Assembly: GCF_907164915.1 (NCBI RefSeq)
Contig: NC_061862.1
Span: forward strand, 63,614,228-63,678,227
Source: Impatiens glandulifera
Taxonomy: Eukaryota > Streptophyta > Magnoliopsida > Ericales > Balsaminaceae
DNA: 64,000 nt
Direction of reading: 5' to 3'
The notes under the pieces were generated by a model. The model was not told where the DNA came from and made no database searches. It was given only the letters and a program-made list of their open reading frames with translations. Below, in pieces: positions 14,801 to 64,000 of the stretch (position 1 is the stretch's first letter; every line of letters starts with the position of its first letter). Made by a program: the position numbers and the translations under genes.

Positions 14801-15190
14801 GGCTTGCAGGCTCTACAGTTTCTGGGTTTACTCTGTGGTAGCTGGTGTAAATATATGCCCCTGTTGATTGTGGATCCACTGACTTTGTTGAGAGATCTAC
14901 CTGTAACGATATCGTCTCTTCTATCAGAAAGCAGCTGGTTGGCTGTGGCGGAAACAGTGGCATCTTGTTTGTGGGTTTCAACCGAACGAATAAATGATTG
15001 GGTGACGAAAATAAAAGTGGATGGTAATCATGTTTATGATGGTTCACAATCGCCCATTGACAGTAGTGAGAATGATATGTCTCTCTTCTTATTGCGAGTT
15101 CTGCATGACACGTGCTTCTGCTTGAAAGATCATTTGTCCTCTGACAAGCAGCTGAAACTTGCAAACATGCGCTTCCCTGAATCCTCCTAG
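2834..15190 (+). CDS. RST1: RST1 (RESURRECTION 1), ARM/HEAT-like cofactor of cytosolic exosome and Ski complex
   Basis: I resolved 25 exons with GT/AG junctions and continuous phase: 2834-3226, 3348-3629, 3716-3799, 3899-4172, 5027-5274, 5840-6023, 6142-6332, 6443-6543, 6914-6989, 7399-7530, 7616-7697, 7895-7967, 8319-8481, 8656-8786, 8869-8960, 9537-9612, 9695-9917, 10013-10090, 10373-10555, 10963-11850, 11935-12231, 12826-13458, 13976-14126, 14226-14344, 14810-15190. They total 5535 nt, or 1844 residues, almost the length I recall for Arabidopsis RST1. The N-terminus ([24 protein letters not shown]) is characteristic. The rest is leucine-rich helical-repeat sequence without catalytic motifs. 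RST1 is the plant counterpart of animal focadhesin. With RIPR it bridges the Ski complex and the cytosolic RNA exosome, and mutants show altered cuticular wax and embryo defects (established knowledge). The largest exon (10963-11850) covers residues 1023-1318. The frame is intact, so the gene looks functional. An AATAAA lies at 15266. Confidence 0.95.
4407..4751. mobile_element. MITE-like insertion in RST1 intron 4
   Basis: The ends form an imperfect terminal inverted repeat: GGGCCTTTTGGTTATCAC on the left and, on the opposite strand at the right end, aGGTCCGTTTGATAAAC. The interior is AT-rich and non-coding. It accounts for much of the 854-bp intron. The superfamily is uncertain (hAT-like by the look of the ends). 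Confidence 0.45.
9012..9211. repeat. 100-bp tandem direct duplication in RST1 intron 15
   Basis: Units 9012-9111 and 9112-9211 both begin ccgggatgaaataattta and differ at only a few positions, so the duplication is recent. It lies wholly within the intron between exons 15 and 16. Confidence 0.9.
10600..10745. mobile_element. MITE-like repeat, copy in RST1 intron 19
   Basis: Shares a diverged block with 13600-13745 in intron 22, including 'atgtggaa.taat', 'gaaagt.attaaaga' and 'tatagtgacgtaatt'-type segments in the same order and orientation. Non-coding; the termini were not resolved. Confidence 0.5.
12297..12780. mobile_element. Probable non-autonomous insertion in RST1 intron 21
   Basis: A GC-rich patch at about 12340-12450, with runs such as cgggggcatttcccccggg and gatcgggtgggga, sits inside an otherwise AT-rich intron and is followed by AT-rich filler. 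The composition jump suggests an inserted element rather than ancestral intron. Ends are not clear. Confidence 0.35.
13600..13745. mobile_element. MITE-like repeat, copy in RST1 intron 22
   Basis: Second copy of the repeat seen at 10600-10745, same orientation and diverged. It is followed by a short triplicated ttttggatttt tract near 13765. Confidence 0.5.
14612..14777. mobile_element. MITE in RST1 intron 24
   Basis: Ends AGGTCTTGTTTGATC and, on the other strand, AGACCTTGTTTAATA form a terminal inverted repeat of about 15 bp around an AT-rich non-coding core of about 165 bp. It sits just upstream of the last exon. Confidence 0.5.
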
Positions 15191-31130: not shown

Positions 31131-32674
31131 AGTTAGGATAAATGACAATGAAGTTAGGATAAATAATAATGAAGTTGAATATTGTTGTATTAATTATCAC
31201 TTTCAATTCGATTTTAATCCTATTAAAGATGATTATTTTCTATTCTTCACAAATCGTCTCACACGCTTGAACGAATTTAAGTGCGGAATGTGCTTACTAG
31301 ATTTGAAGCGGAAAATGCAAGACTGTAATATGCAGTAAGTAAATGACACAAGAGTTTTATGGATGTTCGAAGATAAAACTTCTACGTCACCCCTTCTTTT
31401 GTTTCTAGAAGGATTTTCACTAGAAGACTTTGATTCGTATAGCAACTACACAAACCTAGTTAAACCACATGACTTAACAGTTGTCTGTTTCTGAACTCTT
31501 AACCATCACTCACTGTTGAACATACAACGTTCTTTTCAACTTACAATATTGAAAATACACTCAGGTAGAACAGTAAATAATAGCTCACTTTAGCTAAGTG
31601 AATTATAGAATAATCTTAGTGACAGTATCGCAACGCTAAGCAATTTGGAAGTCATGCGAGAGCTCGTTCGTCGTTGTACTCTAATCACCTTTTATAATGA
31701 AGTCGTAGCAACGATCAAATTTGTCTCTTGGATACGTGTCAACTTTCTGATGGATGTATGACATGTGTACATATAGTACGCAAGAATATAATCGTTGGAA
31801 CGTGGCGTACCGGATTATACCACGAAATATTCGGTAGAACGTGGTGTACTAGAAGGTACAACGCGGGCTAGTGGAATGATTGCGAACGTCGCAGTAATGC
31901 AAGTTTGGCGTATTAAGCTGACTTGGCTGACGGCTGATAGTGAACGCTATTGTTCGCTATGCTGATGAGCTATGTAGATAAGCAAACGCTTCTTCAGATG
32001 ACTGCTAAAGCAATGCATCTGCTTGCGCTTCTTCAAGATGCTGCTGAAGCAATGCGTATGAACACGCTTCTTTAGGCTGATGCTGAAGCAAGGCGTCTGA
32101 ACGCGTTTCTTCAGACTGCTGCTAAAGTAAGGCGTCTGAATGCTCTGCTTTAGGTTGATGCTGAAGCAAGGCTTCTGAACGCTCTTCTTTAGGCTGATGC
32201 TGAAGCAAGACGTATGAACGCGCTTCTTCAGGCTGCTGCTAAAGTAAGGCGCCTGAATGCTCTTCTTCAGGCTGATGCTGAAGCAAGGCGTCTGAACGCT
32301 CTTCTTTAGGCTGATGCTGAAGCAAGACGTCTGAACGCGCTTCTTCAGGCTGTTGCTGAAACAAGACGTCTAAACGTGCTTCTTCAGGCTACTATTGACA
32401 ATGTGTCTGAACGCGCTTCTTCAGGCTACTGCTGAAGCAAGGCATCTGCTCGCGCTTCTTCAGACTGCTGCTGAAGCAAGGCGTCTACTGAGCTGTACCT
32501 GCGCATTAAACATTTGCACAACTTAGTTTTAATTCACGAACACATACTTAAAAAACTATGTCGTATTAATTAAACTTATTTTTATTCACCTAAGTTTATT
32601 TTAATTATTTAACAGATTTTTCTTATTTTAACTTAATTAATTTTCCCTTTTTCTTTATTTAACTTATTCTAACA
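31131..32674 (-). repeat. 3' LTR of the large Copia
   Basis: Matches 46571-47733 and 58134-59372. It is 1544 bp, about 310 bp longer than the other LTRs, explained by 13 rather than 5 units of a 39-bp minisatellite. A TATAAAAG promoter motif reads on the minus strand at 31689-31696. Its outer end shows a local 20-bp duplication (gttaggataaat twice). Confidence 0.85.
31988..32492. repeat. 39-bp minisatellite in LTR U3, 13 units
   Basis: The unit is cttcttcaggctgctgctga then agcaaggcgtctgaacgcg, 39 bp, hence an exact multiple of three and open in several frames. It lies upstream of the LTR TATA motif (on the minus strand), that is in U3. The same array has five units in the other two LTR copies. 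Confidence 0.9.
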
Positions 32675-35888: not shown

Positions 35889-38800
35889 TTAACGAAGAAG
35901 ACCAACTGAAGTTGCACACAACTTCAGTTTCTCATTTGTCACAGCTTTCGTCAACATATCAGCTGGATTCTCACTCCCGGGAATCTTCTCAAGAGCTAAT
36001 ACTCCATCTTCTAAAGCTGACCGGATGAAATGATAACGAACCTGTATATGCTTCGTCCTGCCATGATAAACAAGATTCTTTGCCAAATGAATGGCACTCT
36101 GACTGTCGCATCGCAACACACTTCCCTCGTAGTCTTGACCCAATTCTCGCAAAAAGGGTTGTAACCACATCATCTTCTTAGCAGCTTCTGTCACAGCAAC
36201 ATACTCTGCCTCACAACTAGAAAGAGCAACAATCTTCTGCAATTTTGAAACTCAACTGATTGCAGTACCTCCCAGAGTATAAATGTACCCTGTTGTGCTC
36301 TTCCTATTATCAACATCACCACCATTGTCAACATCAACATATCCTTCCAAACCCATATTAGACTTTCGAAAATACAAAGCAAAACTCGTACTTCCTCTTA
36401 AGTATTGTAGAATCCACTTTACTGCTTCCCAATGTTGTCTACCCGGGTTGCTCATGAATCTGCTAACAACTCCCACTGCATGTGCTATGTCTGGTCTTGT
36501 GCAAACCATCGCATACATAATACAACCAATGGCAGATGTATACAGAACAATGGCCATGTAATTTTTCTCCTCCTCTGTTGAAGGCGACTGATATTTAGAT
36601 AGTCTAAAGTGACTAGCTAAGGGGGTAGTAACTGGTTTTGCATCATACAAGTTGAACCTGCTAAGAACTTTATTCACATATTCTTCTTGTGAAAGCTTGA
36701 GAACTTCTTCATCCCTGAAAATTCTCATCCCATGGATTTGTTTAGCAGCACCCAAATCCTTCATTGCAAACTTTTCAGACAACTCTTTCTTGAGCTTGTT
36801 AATTTCATACAAGCTTGCTCCAGCAATCAACATATCATCGACGTAGAGGAGCAGAATAATGTACGATTTATCAAATCTCTTGATATAACAACAATGATCA
36901 GCTTCACACCTTAGAAAATTGTTACTTTTCATGAAGCTATCGAACTTCTTGTACCATTGTCTTGGAGCCTGTTTCAAACCATACAGACTCTTCTGAAGCT
37001 TACACACAAGCTCATCTTTTCCTTTGATTTCAAATCCTTCTGGTTGTCGCATATAAATCTCTTCATCTAAATCACCGTGAAGAAAAGCAGTTTTGACATC
37101 CATTTGTTGAAGATGAAGGTCTTCTTTCACAACCAAACTCAAAATAGTTCTGATTGTCATCAATTTAACTACTGGAGAAAAGATTTCATTGTAGTCAATA
37201 CCTTCTTTCTGTTGAAATCCTTTCACAACCAACCTTGCCTTGTACCTCATGGTTTTATCATGTTCTTCTTTAATCCTGAAGATCCATTTGTTGTGAAGTG
37301 CTTTCTTTCCCTTTGGTAGCTCAGTGAGCTCCCAAGTCTGATTCAACATCAAAGAATTCATCTCATCTTTCATAGCAGACTCCCACTTAATCAATTCATC
37401 AGATTGTATTGCTTCGTCATAACATTCAGGTTCACCTCTATCTGTCAACAAAATATAGTTTAGAGATGGAGACCACCTCTCAACTGGTTTTCGATTCCTT
37501 GATGATCTTCTTTACTGTATAACCGGTGTTTTCTGATTTACCTCTAGGGCCACATTCTCAACGATTTCATCTTCAAAAACACATTGTTCTTCTTCGACAA
37601 CCGGTATATATTCAGCTGAAAATTCTCTCAAATCGACTGTACCAGTCTCTTCCAACTTAGAATCACCATATGATGTCTTCCCAACACAATCTTTGTAGAG
37701 AACCTGTTCATTGAAGATAACATTTCTGCTACGAATGATCTTCCGATTTTGATTATCCTAGAAACGATAACCAAACTCGATATCACCATAACCAATGAAA
37801 AAACATTTATTAGACTTTTGATCAAGCTTGCTCCTATCACAGTCATTAATATGAACATATGATAAACAACCAAACACTTTCAAATAAGAAAGATTTACCT
37901 TTTTATTGCTCCAAGCTTCTTCAGGAATTCTGAATTCAAGAGGAACAGAGGGTCCCCTGTTTATCAAATAGACAGCAGTATTTATAGCTTCTGCCCAGAA
38001 GATTTTAGGAAGCCCTGCATGCAATCTCATGTTTCTAGCACGCTCGTTCAATGTTCGATTCATTCGTTTACCTACTCCATTCTCTTGAGGCGTTCGGGGA
38101 ACAATCTTCACCATACGGATCCCATTCACAGCACAATACTCTTTGAAATCTGAATTGATATATTTACCTCCATTGTCGGATCTCAAGCACTTAACTTTCT
38201 GATTTGTTTCATTTTCAACCAAAGCCTTCCACTTCTTGAAAATAACAAATACTTCAGACTTGTGCTTCATAAAGTAAACCCATACTTTTCTTGTTGAATA
38301 ATCTATAAAAGTCACATAGTAGTATGATCCGCCAATAGAAGAAACAGGTGCAGGTCCCCACACATCAATGTGTACCAACTCTAGTCTTTCTTTCTTGAAC
38401 TCCTTCCCAGTTTTTAAGAAACTCACTCGTTTCTGTTTTCCAAGAATGCAGGTTTCACATAACTGATGTTCAACAGACTTCAGTTCTGGAATCTGCCCAT
38501 TCTTCAAAAGAATTTTCATCCCTTTTTCGCTTATATGGCCCAACCTGCAATGCCACAGCTCACTGTTCTTCGACTCATCAACTACAGCAGCAACTAATTC
38601 TCTGTAAGTTGAAGTCGTGTATAACGTTCTAGTTTTGTGACCTCGAGCAACAACTATCGCTCCTTTAGTCACCTTCCACGCACCATTTCCACAACTGAAA
38701 TTGTGACCTTCTTCATCAAGTTGTGTAATAGAGATCAAATTGTGCATTAAACCTGGAATGTGTCTCACCTTATTAATCTTCCAAACAGAACCATTTGCCA

Positions 38801-39806
38801 TCTTCAATTTGACGTCCCCCATGCCAACAATATCTAGTGGCTCACCATCTGCGAGATAAACTTTCCCATAGTTTCCAGCCACATAATTCTCCATTAATTC
38901 TTTGTGGGCAGTGGTGTGGAAAGACGCTCCTGAGTCCAAAACCCATGAATCTATCGGGCTATCAACAGACAGAAGTAACGCATCAGTGACAGATTCTGTA
39001 ACAACGTTGGCTGCATCATTTTTATCATCACCATTTTTCTTCGGTGCTTTGCAGTTCCTCTTTAAATGACCCTGTTTACCACAATTCTAGCACTCAAATG
39101 TCCGCCCAGACTTGGACTGACTCCTCCTGCTCCTTGACATAGATCTGCTCTTACCTCAGTTAAAATTTCTATCATTACCTCAACCCCTGTTTTCCACATT
39201 CAGAGTAGAACCTTTGAATGTTTCACCAGAATCAATTTTACGAACCTCTTCAGCAAGTATACGATCTCTAACTTCAACAAATTTCAGTTTAGCATTTCCA
39301 ACTGAATTACTAATTGCTGCCCTCATAGGTTCCCAACTATTTGGTAGAGATGCTAACAAAATCAGGGCACTAACTTCATCCCCAAAATCAATCTCAACAG
39401 ATAGCAATTGATTCACAATAGTATTGAATTTATTCAAATGAGTAGTGACAGAAGTACCATCAACCATTCTTAAGTAAAAGAGTCTTTTCATTAAGTGTAC
39501 CTTATTGTTAGCAGATGATTTCTCATACATATCAGAAAGAGCTTTCATCAGACCCATGGTGGTCTTCTCCTTTGCTACATTGTGAGCAACTGTCTTGGCT
39601 AGCGTCAATCGAACAACTCCCAAAATCTGTCTATCAAGGAGTTTCCATTCAGCTTCATCCATCTTCTCTTGTTTCTCACTCAAAGGAACATGAAGCTTCT
39701 TTCCATAGAGATAATCTTCAATCTGCATTCTCCAGAAGGCATAATCTGTCCCATCAAATCTTCTAATCCCATGTCCTATACTGTTCTCACTTGCCATCAT
39801 TTCCAA
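35889..39806 (-). pseudogene. gag-pol of the nested Copia, disabled by in-frame stops
   Basis: All four long blocks share one reading frame of about 1306 codons. Gag is at 39806-39180 (RRFDGTDYAFWRMQIEDYL). A zinc knuckle lies near 39095. Protease (MDSGASFHT) and integrase are at 38939-37758. Reverse transcriptase is at 37451-36252 (QMDVKTAFLHGDL, LLLYVDDMLI). RNase H is at 36242-35889 (CEAEYVA, ADMLTKAV). I see six in-frame stops: 39180, 39156, 39087 (inside the zinc knuckle, where an aromatic residue is usual), 37758, 37512 and 36252. No frameshift is needed. The integrase third catalytic residue, Glu in the NGV.ER motif, is Lys (codon at 38067-38069). The frame type is Tnt1-like. The element cannot move on its own. 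Confidence 0.9.
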
Positions 39807-39840
39807 CTCTCAAATCTAGCCTAGCTGCTCTGATACCAGT

Positions 39841-44500: not shown

Positions 44501-46518
44501 ACGATTTTACCTTTGCTGTTATCGCCAAATGTGATCTTAGGTCCTGTGCACTTTGTTATTTCAGTCAGTAGTCGACTATTGCTTGTCATGTGTTTGAAGC
44601 AACCGCTGTCCAGATACCAAACAAAGTCTTCTAGACAGCTGTCCTGAATTACCTACAAATATACATATTTACAGCTTTGGTACCCACATTCACTTGGATC
44701 CGTAGTTAATCAGTCCCTTAGGAATCCATATTTGGGTTATTTTTATGGATTTCCCATTTTGTGTGGTTAGTAATGCAAATGATTTAGATTTGACAGACGT
44801 CTTCCTACCTACTGTTGATCCCTTGAGTACTTTAGAAGATGAGTTTTGACAAAAACTTCTTGACTTTCTGTCAAGTTTTTATTTGCCAGACCTGCTGACT
44901 GCCTTTTTTTGGGCTTTAGCCAGCTTGACTTTTTGTCAATTGGCTTAACATACTTAAGTTCATCTTTTAAAGTTGAGTTATCACATCTGTGATTAGTTCC
45001 ACTGTTAGTTAAATGTCCCTTGACAAAACTTATGGGTTTAAGCTCGCATTTTACTAGGTTCAACTTTTTGTTGGACTCATCTGGGATACCATTATCAAAT
45101 CCTAGACTGGATTTGTATCCGACATGCCTTTGCTGACTGATCAGCTGTTTGACGGTGTCTCCAGATTTTGTCGAAGAACTAACCACGTAGTTTAACAGAA
45201 AGAGAGCTCGATTATTTTCAACAGAAAGAGTTTGAATTGTTTCCTTGAGCTTCTCATTCTCAAATGAGAGCTCGGTTATTTTCAAAATTTCTTGTTCAGT
45301 GTTTTGAGATGAGGAAGTGATGTCAGTTTTGTTTTTTTAAATTTATTTCATTAAAAGAGTCTAACAGCTTCTTGTACTCAATGACCATGTCATTGAGTGT
45401 AATAGTTAAGTTATCTCTTGTGAACTCGTCAGACGATAAGTCAAATACCTCAGTGTCATCATCCATGAAGCATCTAACGGCTTCATCTTCACTTTCTCTT
45501 GATGAGTTGTCATCTGAATCACTATCAGCCCACTTGCTCTTACTCTCCTCAGCCAGCAGAGCTTTTTGATCATTCTTATTCTTCTTATCATAAGGCTTCT
45601 TATCATCCCTCTTGGACTTTCTACAGTCCGCCTTGAAGTGACCTGATTTGTCATAGTTGAAGCACTTCAAGTTAGATTTGGAGTCATTTTTATAATAACT
45701 ATTATTAGAATTAGAGTTAGAATGAGTCTTCTTCATGAATTTTCCAAACTTCTTGACGAAGAGTGACATAACATCGCTATTGATCTACTCAGCAGACTTC
45801 GTAGCTATCGCGGCAGGTGGTCATTCAGCTGTCACCAACGCTTTTGTTGTGACGGATGTGGATGGCTCCTCTTCATTACTTGAGTTTATTTCAAACTCAT
45901 ATGCTTTCAGATCGACGAACATGTCATGCAGCTCAATCTTATTGAGATATTTGGATTCCCTCATCGCCATTGTTTTGATGTCTCATTCTCTGGGCAGAGC
46001 TCTCATGACTTTGATGACAACATCTCTGTTGTTATATATCTTTCCCAGAGTGGAGAGCTCAATGACAATGCTGCTGAATCTTTCATCAAATTCAGTCATT
46101 TTCTCTCCAGGACACATCTTGATGTTGTCAAACTTCGGTGTGGCAACCATCAACTTATTTTCTTTTGTTTGGTCGTTGCATTCACAAACTTGAGTCATCT
46201 TCTCCAAAATTTCTTTGGAAGTGGAACATGACTTGATCTTGCTGAACATGTTCTTATCAAGAGTTTTTTGAAAATGTCTGGCCACATTGTCGAGGTTGGC
46301 CTTCCTCTTGTCTTCAACAGTACACTCATATCTTGGTTTCTCCTTCATCTCAAGAGCACCATCAGTTGAAGTTGTGGCCGTGCTAACATAAGGTATATCT
46401 TCATTGGATCGTTAGTGATGACATACCACATATCATCTTCTCGAGCATCCAAATGAGTAATCTTCCATTCATCATAATCTTCCTTTAAGAACATTGAGAT
46501 TTTGTTTAGGATAGACAT
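41501..46518 (-). pseudogene. gag-pol of the large SIRE-like Copia
   Basis: Broken by stops and shifts but complete in order. The gag start is at 46518 (MSILNKISMF). A UBN2-type gag follows at 46348-45983 (DEFDERFS-like, KVMRALPRE). The zinc knuckle near 45640 has its second Cys replaced (CFNYDKSGHFKADC). Next are a coiled-coil region at 45285-44809, the pre-integrase region at 44589-44347, and integrase at 44041-43436 (IIDDYSKFTW, RSDRGTEF; the catalytic Glu is Lys at 43733-43735). Reverse transcriptase is at about 42900-42300 (RIYVDDIIFG), with stops at 42806, 42566 and 42374. RNase H is at 41788-41501 (FCDNTSAI, DIFTKPLP). Several stops sit where Gln is usual, consistent with C-to-T changes. 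Confidence 0.85.
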
Positions 46519-46556
46519 AATTCAGGTATCTGTTTTGCCTGAGAATAGAAAACTAA

Positions 46557-46570
46557 GCTCTGATATCACT
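46557..46570 (-). promoter_or_regulatory. Primer-binding site of the large Copia
   Basis: On the minus strand agtgatatcagagc follows the LTR end. It matches the initiator-Met site ggtatcagagc except for one base. The intact version (gtggtatcagag) is preserved in the duplicate at 58120-58133. Confidence 0.75.
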
Positions 46571-47733
46571 TGTTAGGATCGACGACAACAATAGAAGGGG
46601 GTTGAATATTGTTGCACTAATTATCACTTTCAATTCAATTTTAATCCTGTTAAAGATGAAAATTTGTTTCTATTCATCACAAATCGTCGCAAACTCTTGA
46701 ACAGATTTAAGTGCGGAATGTGCTTGCTAGATTTGAAGCGGCAAATGCAAGACTGTAATATGCAGTAAGTAATGACACAAGAGTTTTATTGATGTTTGGA
46801 GATAAAACTCCTACTTCACACATTCTTCTGTTTCCAGAAGAATTTTCACTAGAAGACTTTGATTGTATAGCGACAACACAAACCCAGTCAGACCACAGGA
46901 CTTAACAACTGCCTGTTTCTAAACTCCTAGCTATCACTCACTCTTGAACATACAACGTTTTGTTCAACTTATAATACTAAAAATACACTCAGGTATAACT
47001 GTAAACAATAGCTCAACTTAGCTTAGAGAATTACAAAATAATCTTAGAGAGAGTAGTCACAACGCTAAGAAATTCGGAAGTCGTGCGGGAGCTCGCTCGT
47101 CGTTGTACTCTGATCACCTTTTATAATGAAGTCATAGAAACGGTTGAATTTGTCTCTTGGATATGTGTCAACTTTCTGATGGATGTATTCCAGGTGTATG
47201 GGATAGTACATAAGAATATATTCGTTGGAACGTGGCGTACTGGATTGTACTTTAGAATTTTCGGTAGAACGTGGTGTACTGGAAGGTACAACGCATGCTA
47301 GTGGAATTATTGTGAACGTGGTAGTAATGCAATTTTGGCGTTTTAAGCTGACTTGGCAATTGGCTTATAGCGAACGCTGATGTTCACTATGATGATGAGC
47401 TATGCAGATAAGCAGACGCTTCTTCTAACGAATGCTGAAGCAATGCGTCTGCTGGCGCTTCTTCAGTTCGCTGCTGAAGCAAGGCGTCTGAACGCGCTTC
47501 TTCAGGCTGCTACTGAAGCAAGGCGTTTGCTCGCGCTTCTTCAGGCGCTGCTGAAGCAAGGCGTTTGAAGGCGCTTCTTTAGGCTGCTGCCGAAGCAAGG
47601 CGTCTACTGAGCTGTACGTATCTGCGCATTAAACATTTGCACAACATAGTTTGTTCATGAACACATCATTAAAACTATGTTGTATTAATTAAACTTATTT
47701 TTATTCAAATTAATTTTAATCGATTAACACATT
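46571..47733 (-). repeat. 5' LTR of the large Copia, inner part (split by insertion)
   Basis: Starts TGTTAGGATCG on the + strand. The minus-strand TATAAAAG motif is at 47118-47125. The LTR is cut at 47733 by the long-LTR element and resumes at 52381-52444. The two pieces together make about 1.23 kb. Confidence 0.88.
47417..47610. repeat. 39-bp minisatellite in LTR U3, 5 units
   Basis: Same unit as 31988-32492. One unit has a 1-bp deletion near 47548. Confidence 0.88.
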
Positions 47734-47943
47734 TGTAAGCATGAAAATTTGACTTACCCTATTTTCAAAATAATATGATTATGTTTAATAATATTAAAAC
47801 AATATTTTGGATTTTTATATTCAAAATAACTTAAAAAAGGAATTGAAACCTAATTAAGGATTAATTATTGTGATAATTAAACCTTAATTAAGGAAACTTT
47901 CCAAAATTTCAAAAATAATTTGAGGATAAAATATTTGTACATA

Positions 47944-53869: not shown

Positions 53870-54075
53870 TGTTCATCTCTATCTCTATATAAGATATTAT
53901 TTTTTTCTTATTACTTATATATTACTTAAAATGAAAAAAAATATATTATATTTTATTAACATTCTTCAAGTACTTATTTCTTTTTATTGAATATTATAGT
54001 TCTTATTTTGATTAATGTTATTAATATTTATTATAATATAATTTTATTTCATTGTTTATGATATTAAGATATAAA
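53870..54075 (+). pseudogene. Decayed promoter, exon 1 and intron of the Cys-rich peptide gene, unit 1
   Basis: Colinear with 54462-54693 of the intact gene: 'gtgttcatct' leader, TATATAAG at 53886, ATG at 53931 followed by a hydrophobic frame (MKKNILYF versus MGKNSLLL), then intron-like sequence with 'atttatttc.ttttta', 'ttaatgttattaatattta' and 'tttcattgttta.gatatt'. It stops where the acceptor and exon 2 should be. No cysteine exon follows, so it cannot make the peptide. Confidence 0.7.
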
Positions 54076-54109
54076 TTTTATTAAAATATAATAAATATAT
54101 TTATTAAAC

Positions 54110-54410
54110 ATCTTTAAAAAAATCGTATAGAAATACATGAATTTAATGACATAACTTTATAGATTTACTTTATATTTCACAACGATATTATACCATCTTT
54201 TAAAAAATCCTATAGAAATAAATGGATTTAATGACATAACTTTATAGATTTAGTTTTTATTTCACAACGATATTGTACCATCTTTAAAAAAAATTCTATA
54301 AATATACATGGATTTATTGACATAACTTTATAGATTTACTTTTTATTTCACAACGATATTATACCATCTTTAAAAATATCCCTAAAATGTATTGGATTAC
54401 ATGATAACAA
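54110..54410. repeat. 85-86-bp tandem repeat upstream of the peptide gene, unit 1
   Basis: Unit heads (atcttt) at 54110, 54195, 54280 and 54366. Each unit contains 'gacataactttatagattta' and 'tttcacaacgatatt.tacc'. The last unit is partial and runs into the gene promoter. Confidence 0.9.
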
Positions 54411-54477: not shown

Positions 54478-54485
54478 TATATAAG
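54478..54485 (+). promoter_or_regulatory. TATA box of the Cys-rich peptide gene, unit 1
   Basis: TATATAAG 50 bp upstream of the ATG, implying a leader of roughly 20 nt. Same spacing in unit 2. Confidence 0.6.
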
Positions 54486-54527: not shown

Positions 54528-54887
54528 ATGGGGAAAAATTCTCTTCTATTAACTGTTTTCATAATTTTATTGGGTATTTATTTCTTTTTATTTAATAATA
54601 AAACTTAGATTGATTATTGTTCTTATTTTGGTTAATGTTATTAATATTTATAATTATTAAATAATTTTATTTCATTGTTTACGATATTTGTAGGTTTACT
54701 ATTCTCAGAGTCTACAGCACCATGTCGATCGGCCAATGATTGTCCACCATGCCTCCGCGCACCAAACTTTAGAATAGTTTGTTTTAGAGGTCAATGTGAT
54801 TGTCTTATAGATAGCATAAATGAAAGACTTTCCACTGTTAAGTCTACACAATATACATCAAGTGAGACAAATTACAATTCTAATTAG
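54528..54887 (+). CDS. Small secreted six-cysteine peptide (late-nodulin/NCR-like or defensin-like), copy 1
   Basis: Two exons, 54528-54573 and 54694-54887, joined by a 120-bp GT/AG intron in phase 1, giving 79 residues. Residues 1 to about 24 (MGKNSLLLTVFIILLG...) are a signal peptide, with likely cleavage near SESTA. The mature part has cysteines spaced C-x5-C-x2-C-x9-C-x4-C-x-C, with DCPPC and the end C-x4-CDC. A polar tail of about 26 residues rich in Ser, Thr and Asn follows. A signal-peptide exon plus a Cys exon, and the C-x5-C...C-x4-C-x-C skeleton, match plant late-nodulin/NCR and related defensin-like peptides (family knowledge). Those act as antimicrobial or signalling peptides, or on endosymbionts in some legumes. 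The role here is unknown. Only short ORFs would show without splicing. Confidence 0.75.
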
Positions 54888-54938
54888 ATTTTAAATTCAT
54901 AAGGTAAAAATAGGAGATGAACTTAGGTCTAATTAATG

Positions 54939-54944
54939 AATAAA
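54939..54944 (+). terminator. Poly(A) signal of copy 1
   Basis: AATAAA 52 nt after the stop, followed by the T/G-rich tgtattttgtttg. Conserved in copy 2. Confidence 0.55.
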
Positions 54945-55656
54945 ATGTATTTTGTTTGATGTTGTGGTGTTATTTTATTATCAAATATAATTTTAATTTA
55001 ACTCTTAATCAAACAAATTTATTTAACTAAAATCAGATTAAAAAACATAATTTTCTCTAATAATAAGCTTCCCAAAAATATAAATATTTTTAAATATATA
55101 ATAATTTTCTAAATCATAATATTTTTAATATACTGAATATAAACATATAAATAATTTTCATACAGTTTATTCTAAATTTGTATATATCAAATTTTAAAAT
55201 ATATATGATCAGCTAAATAAATTAACAATAATATAGTAAGAATAATTCATTAATAAATAGATAGGGAAAAGTTACACACATGCAATCTCACATAAATAAA
55301 CACAGTCTTTTATTATCATTAATATTTTTTTAAATATATAATTTTAACATATTTTATTTTAATTATAGATAATTTTTAAATTTGATGAAAATAAAAATTA
55401 GTTATATAGTTAATTTTTAACATAGTTTTGATCATATTTATTATTTCTAAATTATATATATATACACTTACCTATCTAAAATAATAAATCCATAAATATT
55501 TGTAAATATTTATACAAAATATATATACATGTATTTAACAAATATGTAAATCCATATATAATTTACACGTAATTATTTTAAATTACATTATATATTTAAA
55601 TTTTCAATTACAAAGTGATAATAATAATTAATAAGAGATTATATATGATTTATTTT

Positions 55657-55691
<35 letters not shown>

Positions 55692-57945
55692 ATTACATAT
55701 TAATTTTATTATTTAAACCGTTAAAAAATATTTTACAATAAATATGTCAATAATAAAAAAATGATGTATCTGTCCATTTTATGATAAATAATAAATAAGA
55801 GATATAATAAAGTTAACACACAACTTATATTAAATTATAAATTGTTTTTTTTATATGATAAAAATAATTGATATAAGATATAATACCACTTTTTTGGGAT
55901 AAAAAAGTAATTCTTATTAATTAAAAAAATAGTTTATAAATAAAAAATAATAAAAAAATTATGTTTAATTAAAATTAATGGTGTGAGTAAAGATAAATAT
56001 AAACTATATAATTAAATTTTTAACAAAATATTAAATTGATATAATTAACTAAATTAATAATAATCATATAAGACCAGTAAAACTCTGAAAGATTAACTAA
56101 TTAATAAAAATAAAAATATCTGAGAGAGTGATTGGAGGACATAGAGAACAATCTTAATTATTATAATAGATTTCATTTATACTATACTTTACTATGTTAA
56201 AGGGGAGACTTATAGCTTGTTTGATATGAGTTTTTTTTTTAGTTTTATGTGTTTTGAGTAAAAAAGTTTGACGAGTATTTTACCTTCTAAATAGATGAAA
56301 TTGAAAATTTGAAAAAAAATTATTAAATAAAAAATATTTTGATAGATAAAAGAAATTATAAAAAAAATGAAATAAAAAAAAAATATTAGATTTTAAGTAA
56401 AATTTTTCTCAAAATTAAACCAATATTAAACAAATTATAAGAGCTGTCTTTTTAATCACATTATTATAATTTTAAAATTAAATTATTTATTTTATTAATT
56501 AAAATACTAAAATATTTTTATTTTTTATCATTATGAAAATGAAAATTTTAATATAATAAAAATATTTTAATAATTTAATTAAGTAAAAACTCATATAAAT
56601 TTTCTTTATTAATTAAGTTTTCTAGAAAACAATCATAAAAAAAATCTTTAAATAACCAAGATGACAAATTCTAAAGCTTCTCATTAAAACCGTTAAAAGA
56701 TTGTACGTAACTTCATTATATTTTATTTTATTTTATTTTATTGAATTAAGAAGAACTATTCTCATGATTAAGAATATCAATGAGGTAGATTAATGAGTAG
56801 AGTGGCAATGCGTTACCATCCCAACCTAATTTTATTTCTGAGATTTTTTTTCTTCTATTCCTGTCATGTTTGGTTTCGAGAATCTTCACGGGCACATTAA
56901 TAAACACCTTTGTCATGTTTGGTTTCAGGAATTTTATTTTTGGTCCGAGAATCTTTATGAGCACATTTATAAACACTTCTATCATGTTTGGTTTTAGGAA
57001 TCCTCTTTTATTTGAATTATATTCTTTTTATTTGACATGTAGTTGAATATGAATGAGTAAGGATGATGATATTTATGTTCTATTTTTCAAATTAATAAAC
57101 ACCTCAATCAGAAGAAGAAAGTTTTACATAAATTATTATATTTATAAGAGTTTTAAATTATTTTTTTATAATAATATGAATTTTTAATATATTATATAAT
57201 AAAATATTTTTATATAATTATAAATTGAACGGTTAAATTGGGGCTCCTTATTAATTATGATTTTAAATTTCATTTTTAAACATCACAATTTCATTTTTAA
57301 ACATCACAATTTCAGGCTTATAGTTAAAGTTATACTTGAGGATATTTTGTCTTAATGATTTCAAACGCCTTTAAATTATTATTTTCATTTATAAACTTAT
57401 TATCACCATTAATTTCATAAAATTAGTAGTAAAAACCTTTAATTCACTAAAATTGACATTATTTATTTATAAGTTTCACTTAGATAATAAGTTGATTTCG
57501 TTTGAAATCGTTATAACATAACCTCGTTTTGTATAATTGTAATATTAAAAAGGCCCAAATTATGAGGATTCAAATAATATATCCATAACTTTTAATTGAC
57601 CTTCAATAAAGAGTCTAAATTTGACAATTCAATCTATAACATTATCACTAATATTTTTTTTAGAAAATATTATATAAATGCGGGAATTCCACAAAATCGA
57701 ATAGAACAAAAGTAATGTGTAAAGAAATCTCCAAAATAGAACGAATCAGAGATAGTAAATACATTTTTCGACCCGTTTCATTCTTTTCCCTAGGTCTAAA
57801 CTCTACTGAAGTTTAAATCATTTTCTTATCAAATCAGGGCGACAAAAACGTAAAGATCCAATCGATCAAAATTAAATTGAAAATCAAATTATTTGAACCA
57901 ACTAAAGAGTAGTAGCAATTTGATGAGTTAGTTGAGTGTTGACCT
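54945..57945. other. AT-rich spacer downstream of copy 1
   Basis: Gene-free. Contains a (TA)n tract (55661-55689) and, at 56790-57000, three close repeats of 'tcatgtttggttt' with 'gagaatctt' and 'gcacat', probably a worn MITE. From 57000 it is paralogous to 24330-25530. Almost all of it is duplicated at 61360-64000. Confidence 0.6.
55661..55689. repeat. (TA)n microsatellite, unit 1
   Basis: About 29 bp here against about 15 bp at the matching place in unit 2 (62081-62095). Confidence 0.85.
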
Positions 57946-57949
57946 TTGT

Positions 57950-59372
57950 GATCTTCATTGGATCGTCAGTGATGACATACCACATATCATCTTCTTGAGC
58001 AACCAAATGATCTTGTATTCTGATCTTCCAGTCATCATAATCTTCCTTTGAGAACATTGAGATTTTGTTTAGGATAGACATGATTCAAGTATCTGTTTTG
58101 CTTGAGAATAAAAAACCAAGCTCTGATACCACTTGTTAAGATCGATGACAATAATAGAAGGAGGTTGAATATTGTTGTACTAATTATCAGTTTCAATTCG
58201 ATTTTAATCCTGATAAAGATGAAAATCTATTTCTATTCTTCACAAATCGTCGCAAACTCTTGAACGGATTCAAGTGCAGAATGTGCTTGCTAAATTTGAA
58301 GCGGCAGATACAAGACTGTAATATGCAGTAAGTAAATGACAAAAGAGTTTTATGGATGTTCGGAGATAACACTCCTACGTCACCCCTTCTTCTATTTTCA
58401 GAAAGATTTTCACTAGAATACTTTGATCGTATAGCGATTGCACAAACCCAATCAGACCACAGGACTTAACAACTGCCTATTTCTAAACTCCTAGCTATCG
58501 CTCACTATTGAACAGACAGCGTTCTGTTCAACCTACAATACTAAAAATACACTCAGATAAAACTGTAAACAATAACTCATCTTAGCTTAGTGAATTACAT
58601 AATAATCTTAGAGAGAGTAGTCACAACGCTAAGCAATTCGGAAGTCGTGTGAGAGCTCGCTCACCGCTGTACTTTGATCACCTTTTATAATAAAGTCGTA
58701 GCAACGTTTGAATCTGTCTCTTGGATACGTGTCAACTTTTTGATGGATGTACGCTAGGAGTACATGATAGTACATAATAATATATTCGTTGGAATGTGGC
58801 GTACTGGATTGTACTACGGAATATTCGGAAGAACGTGGTGTATTGGAAGGTACAACACGACCTAGTGGAATTATTGTGAACGTGGTAGTAATGCAATTTT
58901 GACGTGTTAAGCTAACATGGCAGACGACTTATAGCGAACGCTGCTGTTTGCTATGCTGATGAGCTATGCAATTAAGCGGATGTTTCTTCAGAAGACTACT
59001 GAAGCAATGCGTCTGCTCGCGCTTTTTCAGGCTGCTGCTGAAGCAATACGTCTGAACACGCTTCATTAGGCTGCTGCCGAAACAAGGCGTCTGCTCGAGC
59101 TTCTTCAAGCTGCTGCCGAAGTAAAGCGTTTGCTCGCGTTTTTTCAGGCTGCTGCCGAAGCAAGGCGTCTGCTGAGTTGTACGTACCTGCGCATTAAACA
59201 TTTGCACAACTTAGGTTGTTAATGAACACATCATTAAAAATCATTAAAATTATGTCGTATTGATTAAACTTTTTTTTATTCACTTAAGTTCATTTTAATC
59301 CATTAACACATTTGTCTTGATTTAACTTAATTAATTATTTAATCAATTTTTTTTATTTAACTTATTCGAACC
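57950..59372 (-). mobile_element. Truncated SIRE-like Copia: gag head, primer site and intact 5' LTR
   Basis: 57950-58133 matches the gag start of the large Copia (MSILNKISMFSKEDYDDWKI on the minus strand, start about 58082) and holds a good primer site (58120-58133). 58134-59372 is a whole LTR of 1239 bp with minus-strand TATAAAAG at 58682-58689. The Copia stops abruptly at 57950, the duplication junction, so this is a duplicated piece and not an independent insertion. Confidence 0.85.
58984..59175. repeat. 39-bp minisatellite in LTR U3, 5 units
   Basis: Same unit and number as 47417-47610, diverged in sequence. Its multiple-of-three length gives a 92-codon frame on the minus strand (59207-58929) made of repeated 13-residue blocks, not a gene. 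Confidence 0.88.
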
Positions 59373-60314
59373 AAATTTATTCATTAAAAATTAATAAAGA
59401 GAAGAATTAAGGATAGAGAAAATCTATCAAGCTAACCAATTTTTTTATTCAATTAAAATTTAATATAAATATGTAAAATACATAGATTATATAATAAGAT
59501 TTTAGTTACACTTTATTTCACAAACCATTTACTATTAATATATTTTTTTTAATTATTAAAATACATGTATTACATAATAAAATTAACTTTATAGATTTAC
59601 CTTTTATTTTAATATATATATATATATATATATTAATATATGTACATTAATAATATAAATTTTATTAAAATATTAAATATATTCATTAAAATAATTAAAT
59701 TAATCAGAGAAATAAAATTATTTAAAAGAGATTTAAGAATAGAGAGTTTATCAAATCAATAATTTATTCAATTAAAATTGGTAAAATAGAATTAAATGCA
59801 TGAATTAGAGTTTATTTATTAAAATAAAATCTTCTATAAAATTTTTATTTAATTCAATCACATATTTCTTATCTAATGAAAAAGAATTAATTAATTTTTA
59901 TTTTAACAATATTAAAATATAATTATAATTATCCTTTCTTATTTATAAATCCATGTTAAAAAATAATTATAATTGTAATAATAATAATGACAAAATACAA
60001 ATTTTAAAATAAGATTTATGTTCTAAGCTTTATTTCACACCTATATCTTACCAAGGATAGGAATAAGTATTAAAATAATAAAAATTTAAAAATTAACCCT
60101 AAAATTTCATATATAAATTACATAACATTATTAAATTTATCTCACAACTATATATTAAATATTAATAATAGAGTTTATTAAAATAATATTTTTTACTCAT
60201 TCAAAATCATTAAATTAATAATCCCGAAATAATTTTTTTATTTATCAAAACAATAAATTTATCCAATTTAAGTTTTAAAAATATGCATAAAATGTATGAA
60301 TTACATAATATATA

Positions 60315-60520
60315 TTTTGTGTTCATCTTTATATAAGATATTATTTTTTTCTTATTACTTATATATTACTTAAAATGAAAAAAAATATATTATATTTTAT
60401 TAACATTCTTCAAGTATTTATTTCTTTTTATTGAATATTATAGTTCTTATTTTGATTAATGTTATTAATATTTATTATAATATAATTTTATTTCATTGTT
60501 TATGATATTAAGATATAAAT
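60315..60520 (+). pseudogene. Decayed promoter, exon 1 and intron of the Cys-rich peptide gene, unit 2
   Basis: Duplicate of 53870-54075: TATATAAG at 60330, ATG at 60375, intron-like sequence, no acceptor and no cysteine exon. Confidence 0.7.
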
Positions 60521-60553
60521 TTTATTAAAATATAATAAATATATTTATTAAAC

Positions 60554-60855
60554 ATCTTTAAAAAAATCGTATAGAAATACATGAATTTAATGACATAACT
60601 TTATAGATTTACTTTTTATTTCACAACGATATTATACCATCTTTTAAAAAAATCCTATATAAATAAATGGATTTAATGACATAACTTTATAGATTTACTT
60701 TTTATTACACAACGATATTATACCATCTTTAAAACAAATTCTATAGATATACATGGATTTATTGACATAACTTTATAGATTTACTTTTTATTTCACAACG
60801 ATATTATACCATCTTTAAAAATATCCCTAAAATGTATTGGATTACATGATAACAA
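60554..60855. repeat. 85-86-bp tandem repeat upstream of the peptide gene, unit 2
   Basis: Unit heads at 60554, 60639, 60725 and 60811. Same number of units as unit 1. Confidence 0.9.
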
Positions 60856-60922
60856 TATTGACTTAGATTCACAACCATCACTTTTACTTGATTTCACAGC
60901 TATATATTTGTGTTGGTCTCTC

Positions 60923-60930
60923 TATATAAG
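60923..60930 (+). promoter_or_regulatory. TATA box of the Cys-rich peptide gene, unit 2
   Basis: TATATAAG 50 bp before the ATG, as in copy 1. Confidence 0.6.
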
Positions 60931-60972
60931 ATACATATTTTCTTGCTTAGTGCTTATATATTACTTAAAGAT

Positions 60973-61301
60973 ATGGGGAAAAATTCTCTTCTATTAACTG
61001 TTTTCATAATTTTATTGGGTATTTTTTTTTATTTAATAATAAAACTTAGATTGATTAATATTTATAATTATTAAATAATTTTATTTCATTGTTTACGATA
61101 TTTGTAGGTTTACTATTCTCAGAGTCTACAGCAACATGTCGATCGGCCAATGATTGTCCACCATGCCTCCGCGCACCAAACTTTAGAATAGTTTGTTTTA
61201 GAGGTCAATGTGATTGTCTTATAGATAGCATAAATGAAAGACTTTCCACTGTTAAGTCTACACAATATACATCAAGTGAGACAAATTACAATTCTAATTA
61301 G
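60973..61301 (+). CDS. Small secreted six-cysteine peptide (late-nodulin/NCR-like or defensin-like), copy 2
   Basis: Exons 60973-61018 and 61108-61301, phase 1 junction, 79 residues. Identical to copy 1 except Pro to Thr just before the first cysteine (STATC versus STAPC). The intron is 89 bp, shorter than in copy 1. Signal peptide, six-cysteine spacing, TATA position, upstream repeat array and poly(A) signal are all kept, so both copies look able to work. With one replacement in the whole frame while the surrounding AT-rich DNA carries many small indels, the coding part may be under constraint, though the recent date of the duplication explains much of the identity. Confidence 0.75.
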
Positions 61302-61352
61302 ATTTTAAATCCCTAAAGTAAAAATAGGAGATGAACTTAGGTCTAATTAATG

Positions 61353-61358
61353 AATAAA
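61353..61358 (+). terminator. Poly(A) signal of copy 2
   Basis: AATAAA 51 nt after the stop, same context as copy 1. Confidence 0.55.
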
Positions 61359-64000
61359 ATGTATTTTGTTTGGTGTTGTGGTGTTATTTTATTATCAAAT
61401 ATAATTTTAATTAACTCTTAATCAAACAAATTTATTTAATTAAAATCAGATTAAAAAACATAATTTTCTCTTAATAATAAGCTTCCCAAAAATATAAATA
61501 TTTTAAAATATATAATAATATTCTAAATAATATATAATATTTTTAATATACTGAATATAAACATATAAATAATACAGTTTATTCTAAATTTGTATATATC
61601 AAATTTTAAAATATATATGATCAGCTAAATAAATTAACAATAATATAGTAAGAATAATTCATTAATAAATAGATAGGGAAAAGTTACACACATGCAATCT
61701 CACATAAACAAACACAATCTTTTATTATCATTAATATTTTTTTAAATATATAATTTTAACATATGTTATTTTAATTATAGATAATTTTCAAATTTGATGA
61801 AAATAAAAATTAGTTATATAGTTAATTTTTAACATAGTTTTGATCATATTTATTCTTTCTAAATTATATATATATACACTTACCTATCTAAAATAATAAA
61901 TCCATAAATATTTGTAAATATTTATACAAAATATATAAATATATATACAGTATTTAACAAATATGTAAATCTATATATAATTTACACGTAATTATTTTAA
62001 ATTACATATATATGTTTAAATTTTCAATTACAGAGTGATAATAATAATTAATAAGAGATTATATATGATTTATTTTAAATTATATATATATATATCAATT
62101 ACATATTAATTTTATTATTTAAACCGTTAAAAAATATTTTACAATAAATATGTCAATAATAAAAAAAAATGATGTATCGATCCATTTTATGATAAATAAT
62201 AAATAAGCGATATAATAAAGTTAACACACAACTTATATTAAATTATAAATTGTTTTTTTGATATGATAAAAATAATTGATATAAGATATAATACCATTTT
62301 TTTGGGATAAAAAAGTAATTCTTATTAATTAAAAAAATAGTTTATAAATAAAAAATAAAAAATAATTATGTTTAATAAAAATTAATGGTGTAAGTAAAGA
62401 TAAATATAAACTATATAATTAAATTTTTAACAAAATATTAAATTGATATAATTAACTAAACAAATAATAATTATATAAGACCAGTAAAACTCTGAAAGAT
62501 TAACTAATTAATAAAAATAAAAATATCTGAGAGAGTGATTGGAGGACATAGAGAACAATCTTAATTATTATAATAGATTTCATTTATACTATATACTTTA
62601 CTATGTTAAAGGGGAGACTTATAGCTTGTTTGATATGAGTTTTTTTGAGTTTAATGTGTTTTGAGTAAAAAAGTTTGACGAGTATTTTATCTTCTAAATA
62701 GATGAAATTGAAATATGAAAAAAAATTATTAAATAAAAAATATTTTGATAGATAAAAGAAATTATAAAAAAGATGAAATAAAAAAAGAAAATATTAGATT
62801 TTAAGTAAAATTTCCCTCAAAATTAAACCAATATTAAACAAATTATAAGAGCTGTCTTTTTAATCACATTATTATAATTTTAAAATTAAATTATTTATTT
62901 TATTAATTAAAATACTAAAATATTTTTATTTTTTATCATTATGAAAATAAAAATTTTAATATAATAAAAATATTTTAATAATTAAATTAAGTAAAAACTC
63001 ATATAAATTTTCTTTATTAATTAAGCTTTCTAGAAAACAATCATAAAAAAAATCTTTAAATAAACAAGATTACAAACTCTAAAAGTTCTCGTTAAAACCG
63101 TTAAAAGATTGGACGTAACTCCATTATATTTTATTTTATTTTATTGAATTAAAAAGAACTACTCTCATAATTAAGAATATCAATGAGGTAGATTAATGAG
63201 TAGAGTGGCATTGCGTTACAATCCCAACCTCATTTTATTTCTGAGATTTTTTTTTCTATTCCTGTCATGTTTGGTTTCGAGAATCTTCACGGGCACATTA
63301 ATAAACACCTTTGTCATGTTTGGTTTCATGAATCCTATTTTTGGTTCGAGAATCTTTACGAGCACATTTATAAACACTTCTGTCATGTTCGGTTTTAGGA
63401 ATCTCTTTTATTTGAATTATGTTCTTTTTATTTGACATGTAGTTGAATATAAATGAGTAAGGATGATGATATTTATGTTCTATTTTTCACATTAATAAAC
63501 ACCTCAATCAGAAAAAGAAAGTTTTACATAAATTATTATATTTATAAGAGTTTTAAATTATTTTTCTATAATAATATGAATTTTTAATATATTATATAAT
63601 AAAATATTTTTATATAATTATAAATTGAACGGTTAAATTGGGGCTCCTTATTAATTATGATTTCAAATTTCATTTTTAAACATCACAATTTCAGGCTTAT
63701 AGTTAAAGTTATACTTGATGATATTTTGTCTTAATGATTTCAAACGCCTTTAAATTATTATTTTCATTTATAAACTTATTATCACCATTAATTTCATAAA
63801 ATTAGTAGTAAAAACCTTCGATTCACTAAAATTGACATTATTTATTTATAAGTTTCACTTAGATAATATGTTGATTTCGTTTGAAATCGTTATAACATAA
63901 CCTCGTTTTTGTATAATTGTAATATTAAAAATACCTAAATTATGAGGATTCAAATAATATATCCATAACTTTTAATTGACCTTCAACAAAGAGTCTAAAT
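61359..64000. other. AT-rich spacer downstream of copy 2
   Basis: Duplicate of 54945-57600 with small indels. The frame 63196-63435 is the worn MITE-like 'catgtttggttt' repeat, not a gene. Nothing else is recognised up to the window end. Confidence 0.6.

What the first reader, a model, noticed from the sequence alone, without database searches (positions are those of the whole stretch)
54528..61301. Tandem pair of intact two-exon genes for a secreted six-cysteine, late-nodulin/NCR-like peptide
Seen: both copies have TATA box, signal-peptide exon, small phase-1 intron, cysteine exon and poly(A) signal. The cysteine spacing is C-x5-C-x2-C-x9-C-x4-C-x-C. The 79-residue products differ by a single Pro/Thr. 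Family knowledge: this exon layout and the C-x5-C ... C-x4-C-x-C frame are typical of late-nodulin/NCR and defensin-like peptides, and NCRs are best known from certain legumes. The extra CPPC pair and long polar Ser/Thr/Asn tail are unusual. Inference: if the host is not such a legume, this may be an undescribed lineage-specific peptide family. The split gene is easily missed by automatic annotation.
Basis: partly seen in the sequence, partly recalled or inferred. Interest (0 to 1): 0.78.

Follow-up and report, generated by a model that had tools for sequence, protein, structure and literature searches.

The report
Balsam nodulin-like secreted peptide genes
Himalayan balsam, a plant that is not a legume, carries a small tandem cluster of genes for secreted-type six-cysteine peptides that resemble legume nodule peptides and belong to a wider balsam gene family, several members of which carry two such modules in one peptide.

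Summary
Two intact two-exon genes (54528-54887, 60973-61301) encode 79-residue secreted-type peptides with C-x5-C-x2-C-x9-C-x4-C-x-C, differing only at residue 25. The host is Impatiens glandulifera (Ericales), not a legume. A third copy lies just outside the window; a diverged, intact fourth lies 66 Mb away with all six Cys and the phase-1 intron kept. Late nodulin (PF07127) is the top Pfam hit of all four copies but stays below its cut-off; 0 of 10 shuffled controls hit it. Six protein searches of the genome give 73 distinct places at E<=10, 51 of them at E<=1e-3. Of 12 further loci fetched, 9 carry two six-Cys domains in one exon. Best reading: single-domain members of a lineage-specific, defensin-like/NCR-like peptide family, fast-evolving, probably extracellular defence or recognition peptides. 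No expression data were available; function is inferred. A shuffled-query control of the genome search did not complete.

The parts
54528..54573 (+). copy 1 exon 1 (most of the signal peptide, residues 1-15 and first base of codon 16)
54574..54693 (+). copy 1 intron, phase 1, GTATTT..TTGTAG
54694..54887 (+). copy 1 exon 2: end of signal peptide, six-Cys core, polar tail, stop
54723..54803 (+). copy 1 six-Cys core CRSANDCPPCLRAPNFRIVCFRGQCDC
54478..54484 (+). copy 1 TATA-like TATATAA
54939..54944 (+). copy 1 AATAAA
60973..61018 (+). copy 2 exon 1
61019..61107 (+). copy 2 intron, phase 1
61108..61301 (+). copy 2 exon 2 with stop
61137..61217 (+). copy 2 six-Cys core
60923..60929 (+). copy 2 TATA-like TATATAA
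61353..61358 (+). copy 2 AATAAA
52366..57950 (.). tandem unit 1 (approximate limits)
59298..64000 (.). tandem unit 2 (approximate; runs past the window end)
57951..59315 (.). repeat bordering the units; further copies at 46397-47736 and past the window end

Best explanation
The two genes are real, recently duplicated members of a lineage-specific family of secreted six-cysteine, defensin-like (NCR-like) peptides of Impatiens glandulifera. Shown by sequence: exon 1 encodes most of a signal peptide, a small phase-1 intron follows, and exon 2 encodes a six-Cys core plus a polar tail; there is a third tandem copy, a distant intact paralogue, and more distant relatives in the genome, several with two six-Cys domains. 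Inferred: the peptide enters the secretory pathway, the signal is cut near S22 or A24, three disulfides form (by analogy with NCR13: C1-C4, C2-C5, C3-C6) around a beta-alpha-beta-beta-like core, and the peptide acts outside the cell, on microbes or on a receptor. Between copies 1 and 4 the six Cys are kept while the rest of the mature part changes as fast as or faster than nearby non-coding DNA, as is common for defence or recognition peptides. Defence is thought likelier (about 0.45) than reproductive or other recognition (about 0.25).
For: Intact gene structure in both window copies; third copy differing from copy 1 by one codon (S5C) and a fourth at C1:130.1 Mb with intact 73-aa ORF, six Cys, phase-1 intron, TATA and AATAAA kept. 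Neutral simulation keeps ORF and six Cys in 0.13% of 20000 runs with 60 substitutions, 0.06% with 70. Copies 1 against 4: signal dN 0.19, dS 0.76; mature dN 0.36, dS 0.32; mature exon 41/159 changed against 77/529 nearby non-coding bases, p=0.0017. PF07127 is the top Pfam hit of all four copies (E 0.0022-0.0088), absent in 10 of 10 shuffles. Profile of ten family sequences: best PDB sequence match chickpea NCR13, E 0.044, then potassium-channel toxins. Relatives with a similar signal peptide, 46-nt first exon and phase-1 intron: 7 of 12 regions fetched.
Confidence: 0.82

Rival explanations
1. These are legume late-nodulin/NCR genes acting on bacteroids in nodules.
For: Same gene layout and Cys frame; PF07127 top Pfam hit.
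Against: Host is Impatiens glandulifera; PF07127 below cut-off; CTCTTT, TTGTCTCTT and TGTCTC not found in 1 kb upstream of copies 1, 2 and 4, the first two sought on the coding strand only; AAAGAT is present at -6.
Confidence: 0.02
2. The ORFs are relics or never-expressed copies; the intact frames are due only to youth of the duplication.
For: The three tandem copies are young (about 2% apart) and CDS conservation among them is not significant; relic first-exon copies lie upstream of the genes.
Against: Copy 4, with 59 changed codon positions counted against copy 1, keeps frame, six Cys, splice sites, TATA and poly(A) signal; 0.13% under neutrality.
Confidence: 0.12
3. The peptides are reproductive or other self/partner recognition signals, as AtLURE1 is, rather than defence peptides.
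For: AtLURE1 peptides are a young species-specific tandem cluster of about 90-aa six-Cys DEFLs with C-x-C at the end (PMC3525529, passages); the window family is young, tandem and six-Cys, ends its core in C-x-C, and has near-neutral charge (mature net +1 and 0), unlike strongly cationic antimicrobial NCRs.
Against: No sequence match to LUREs was tested; no expression data.
Confidence: 0.25
4. The NCR resemblance is convergence: a general plant DEFL lineage reached the same six-Cys frame without special kinship to NCRs.
For: Some relatives match scorpion toxin and AtDEF-like profiles as well as or better than PF07127 (protein 8); 3 of 10 relatives have no PF07127 match.
Against: PF07127 is the best hit of the four copies and of 6 of 10 relatives; NCR13 is the best PDB sequence match of the profile.
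Confidence: 0.5

Closest known systems
Legume NCR peptides, six-Cys group B (Pfam PF07127); solved example NCR13 (7TH8, 8ULM)
   Same: Two exons, phase-1 intron shortly before the first Cys, secreted, C-x5-C ... C-x4-C-x-C; Cys1-Cys6 span 27 residues in NCR13 and in the window copies; clustered, fast-evolving genes
   Different: Host is an asterid; PF07127 below cut-off; three nodule-type promoter strings not found; a polar tail, or in relatives a second six-Cys domain, follows the first
Plant defensin-like (DEFL/CRP) genes such as Arabidopsis AtLURE1
   Same: Small secreted six-Cys peptides with terminal C-x-C in young species-specific tandem clusters
   Different: No direct sequence comparison made here; expression and function unknown here
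CS-alpha-beta potassium-channel toxins of scorpions
   Same: Nearly the same Cys frame; weak profile matches
   Different: C-x2-C (CPPC) where toxins usually have C-x3-C (recalled); matches not significant; unrelated organisms
Ib-AMPs of Impatiens balsamina (recalled)
   Same: Cys-rich peptides of the same genus
   Different: Recalled as about 20 residues with four Cys, several per precursor; not compared here

Membership tests
Late nodulin / NCR | Two exons, intron between nucleotides 1 and 2 of a codon shortly before the first Cys | tested here: met
   criterion read in passages of PMC12461094
Late nodulin / NCR | Four or six conserved Cys in the NCR frame | tested here: met
   NCR13 Cys positions
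Late nodulin / NCR | PF07127 score above the curated cut-off of 30.4 bits | tested here: not met
   18.7, 17.9, 17.6 and 16.8 bits for copies 1, 2, 3 and 4
[quoted passage not shown]
   Impatiens glandulifera
Late nodulin / NCR | Nodule-specific expression | not testable with these tools
   no expression data; promoter strings only
Plant defensin-like (DEFL/CRP) peptides | Small precursor with secretion signal | tested here: met
   hydrophobic run, Kyte-Doolittle mean 3.16; a simple calculation, not SignalP
Plant defensin-like (DEFL/CRP) peptides | CS-alpha-beta-type disulfide core | tested here: inconclusive
   AF2 core: strand bridge, short helix, two strands, pLDDT 86.8; PDB matches weak, termicin and NCR13 among them
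Plant defensin-like (DEFL/CRP) peptides | Match to a defensin-like profile | tested here: inconclusive
   none for the window peptides; relative L028 matches PF25052 at 18.3 bits, below its cut-off of 25
Classical plant defensin (PF00304, eight Cys) | Eight Cys and a PF00304 match | tested here: not met
   six Cys and no PF00304 match at E<=10

The most novel reading that the evidence does not exclude
A non-nodulating asterid has its own NCR-like gene superfamily, tens of genes spread over most of its large contigs, several encoding two NCR-type six-Cys domains in one peptide. The NCR gene type (signal exon, phase-1 intron, six-Cys exon, rapid local duplication) would then not be tied to nodulation: either it existed before rosids and asterids split, or it arose again.
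Probability: 0.5. Interest if true: 0.65.

Novelty: new member of a known kind. Interest (0 to 1): 0.52.

Why it matters
NCR peptides are treated as peptides of nodulating legumes (PMC12461094, passages), and whether they share an origin with other nodule defensins is an open question (PMC9387825, passages). A balsam family whose top Pfam hit is the late-nodulin domain and whose best PDB sequence match is an NCR, with the same gene structure, would be an informative outgroup case. It also points to a set of small split genes in a well-known invasive plant that a protein-database search did not return.

Tried and rejected
Legume host: rejected. One RST1 exon gave at most 51% identity among 57 protein hits; a concatenation of RST1 exons (1783 residues, of which 1-1640 were searched) gave I. 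glandulifera RST1 first at 92%, the next listed plants at 56-57%; tblastn of that record against the window gave 22 pieces, 9 at 100%, the others 69-99.5%, several of which run into introns.

Gene models: of the 12 regions, L071, L072 and L074 gave no six-Cys match under my pattern, L070 no convincing first exon, L077 a doubtful acceptor; L016, L052, L056 and L064 also have doubtful acceptors. The script prefers hydrophobic first exons, so its models lean towards signal peptides, and its pattern for second domains is loose. Of ten relatives scanned with Pfam, 7 match PF07127 (E<=1), all below the cut-off, 3 do not. The tree of first domains is unrooted with weak support around the window clade, so loss of a second domain is not shown. 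DNA comparison of tails and 3' regions with two-domain relatives was uninformative. The CPPC as a redox site was considered and set aside, since it is part of a conserved six-Cys frame; not tested.

Not answered (service busy): shuffled-query control of the genome search, a search with an L076-type query (110, 112, 130, 138), and searches with copy 4 as query (59, 61, 74, 82, 90, 98). The lower-scoring places in the family count therefore lack that control.

Full report
Observation. Spliced at GTATTT..TTGTAG in phase 1 they give 79-residue products that differ only at residue 25. The six-Cys spacing occurs nowhere else in the window and in none of 60 Markov-shuffled windows. TATATAA at -50 and AATAAA 51 nt after the stop are present in both. 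Residue 25 directly follows A24, a possible signal-peptidase site; Pro at +1 is generally held to disfavour cleavage (recalled), so copy 1 may be cut elsewhere, for instance after S22. This is inference.

Host. The + strand gene at 2.8-15.2 kb is RST1. A concatenation of its exons matches I. glandulifera RST1 far better than any other listed plant (92% against 57%); 9 of 22 tblastn pieces of that record are identical to the window; and the length of the window's contig, 162159313, equals that given for the contig holding this record. The window is G000:C1:63614228-63678227. I. glandulifera is Balsaminaceae, Ericales. This removes the legume reading.

Local array. The pair is part of tandem units of about 6.5 kb bordered by copies of a ~1.3-kb repeat (46397-47736, 57951-59315 and one past the window end). 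A third unit follows, with an intact gene at C1:63681804-63682163 whose product differs from copy 1 by S5C. Copies 1-3 show 2 variable sites of 240 in the CDS against 45 of 1531 in non-coding DNA, p=0.08, suggestive only; both CDS changes alter the protein.

Old paralogue. DNA and protein searches of the genome found one more close relative at 130.1 Mb of the same contig. It has an intact 73-aa ORF, a 91-bp phase-1 intron, all six Cys, and a conserved proximal promoter, TATA and poly(A) signal. The search flags one stop inside this match; by the coordinates this is the gene's own stop codon, which the match runs past. Its spacing is C-x5-C-x2-C-x7-C-x4-C-x-C. Keeping ORF and six Cys under neutral change has an estimated chance of 0.13% (60 substitutions) or 0.06% (70). 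The signal peptide is constrained (dN 0.19, dS 0.76) and the mature part is not (dN 0.36, dS 0.32). The mature exon has changed more than nearby non-coding DNA (41/159 against 77/529, p=0.0017; 0.008 with 100 bp more of upstream DNA). Gapped columns were left out, which may flatter the non-coding DNA, and synonymous sites are raised too, so positive selection is a possibility, not a result.

Genome-wide family. PF07127 against this genome gave 21 matches at E<=10, none over the cut-off, of which 14 show a six-Cys frame. Protein queries with the window exon 2 and with relatives gave 4, 4, 17, 11 and 18 matches, and a two-domain query gave 42, including copy 4 at E 0.067 but not copies 1-3. Merging these 96 rows gives 73 distinct places at E<=10, 51 at E<=1e-3, 44 of the 51 without an in-frame stop inside the match (rows are not in it; copy 4 is among those flagged with a stop although its frame is intact). 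A shuffled-query control could not be run. Of 12 regions then fetched, 9 hold two six-Cys domains in one exon, and 7 have a clear model with a 46-nt first exon and a phase-1 intron. Their signal peptides resemble those of the window genes (for example MGKNSPNMVFFMILLG|LLFSE and MGKNSLTMTFLMILLG|LLLSE against MGKNSLLLTVFIILLG|LLFSE). The window genes thus look like one-domain members whose tail stands where relatives have a second domain. Whether that domain was lost or never gained is open.

Mechanism. Shown: gene structure, family, conservation pattern. Inferred: secretion, three disulfides, extracellular action, more likely in defence, less likely in reproductive recognition. The AtLURE1 cluster of Arabidopsis is an analogue for a young tandem six-Cys DEFL cluster with a known role (PMC3525529, passages). 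The near-neutral charge of the mature peptides (+1 and 0) speaks against a strongly cationic membrane-acting peptide.

Literature. The NCR gene layout and the statement that NCRs are known only from the IRLC come from passages of PMC12461094; pea NCR structure and clustering from passages of PMC9515463; nodule promoter elements from abstract and passages of PMC3613412; the common-origin claim for nodule peptides from passages of PMC9387825. Ten searches of the paper library, of which I saw only the listed rows, listed no paper whose title or abstract start describes an NCR-like or six-Cys DEFL family in Impatiens or Balsaminaceae; the library lacks most subscription papers.

Noticed in passing
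window 53931-54065 and 60414-60509: Upstream of each copy lies a relic of the same gene: a first-exon-like ATG (read by eye at 53931) and intron sequence but no second exon; the third unit has a like match at C1:63681265-63681337.
   Followed up: partly
window 54102-54381 and 60546-60826: About 3.3 copies of an 85-bp AT-rich tandem repeat, about 150-430 bp upstream of each start codon.
   Followed up: no
window 2834-15187: RST1 (DUF3730) gene of I. glandulifera on the + strand.
   Followed up: yes
window 36252-39809 and 45983-46411: Copia-type LTR retrotransposon remains on the - strand (RVT_2, integrase, gag profiles).
   Followed up: partly
window 31987-32486, 47433-47605, 59001-59173: Arrays of a 39-bp unit in three places; the last two lie inside the repeat that borders the peptide units.
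   Followed up: no
G000 C7:37792110-37867226: Nine matches, one partial, to a related peptide type within 75 kb (loci L043-L051).
   Followed up: partly
L022 (match C3:870818-870958): Another two-domain six-Cys peptide type, with weak late-nodulin, scorpion short toxin and AtDEF-like profile matches below cut-off; a 75% identical copy lies at C3:863348-863602.
   Followed up: partly
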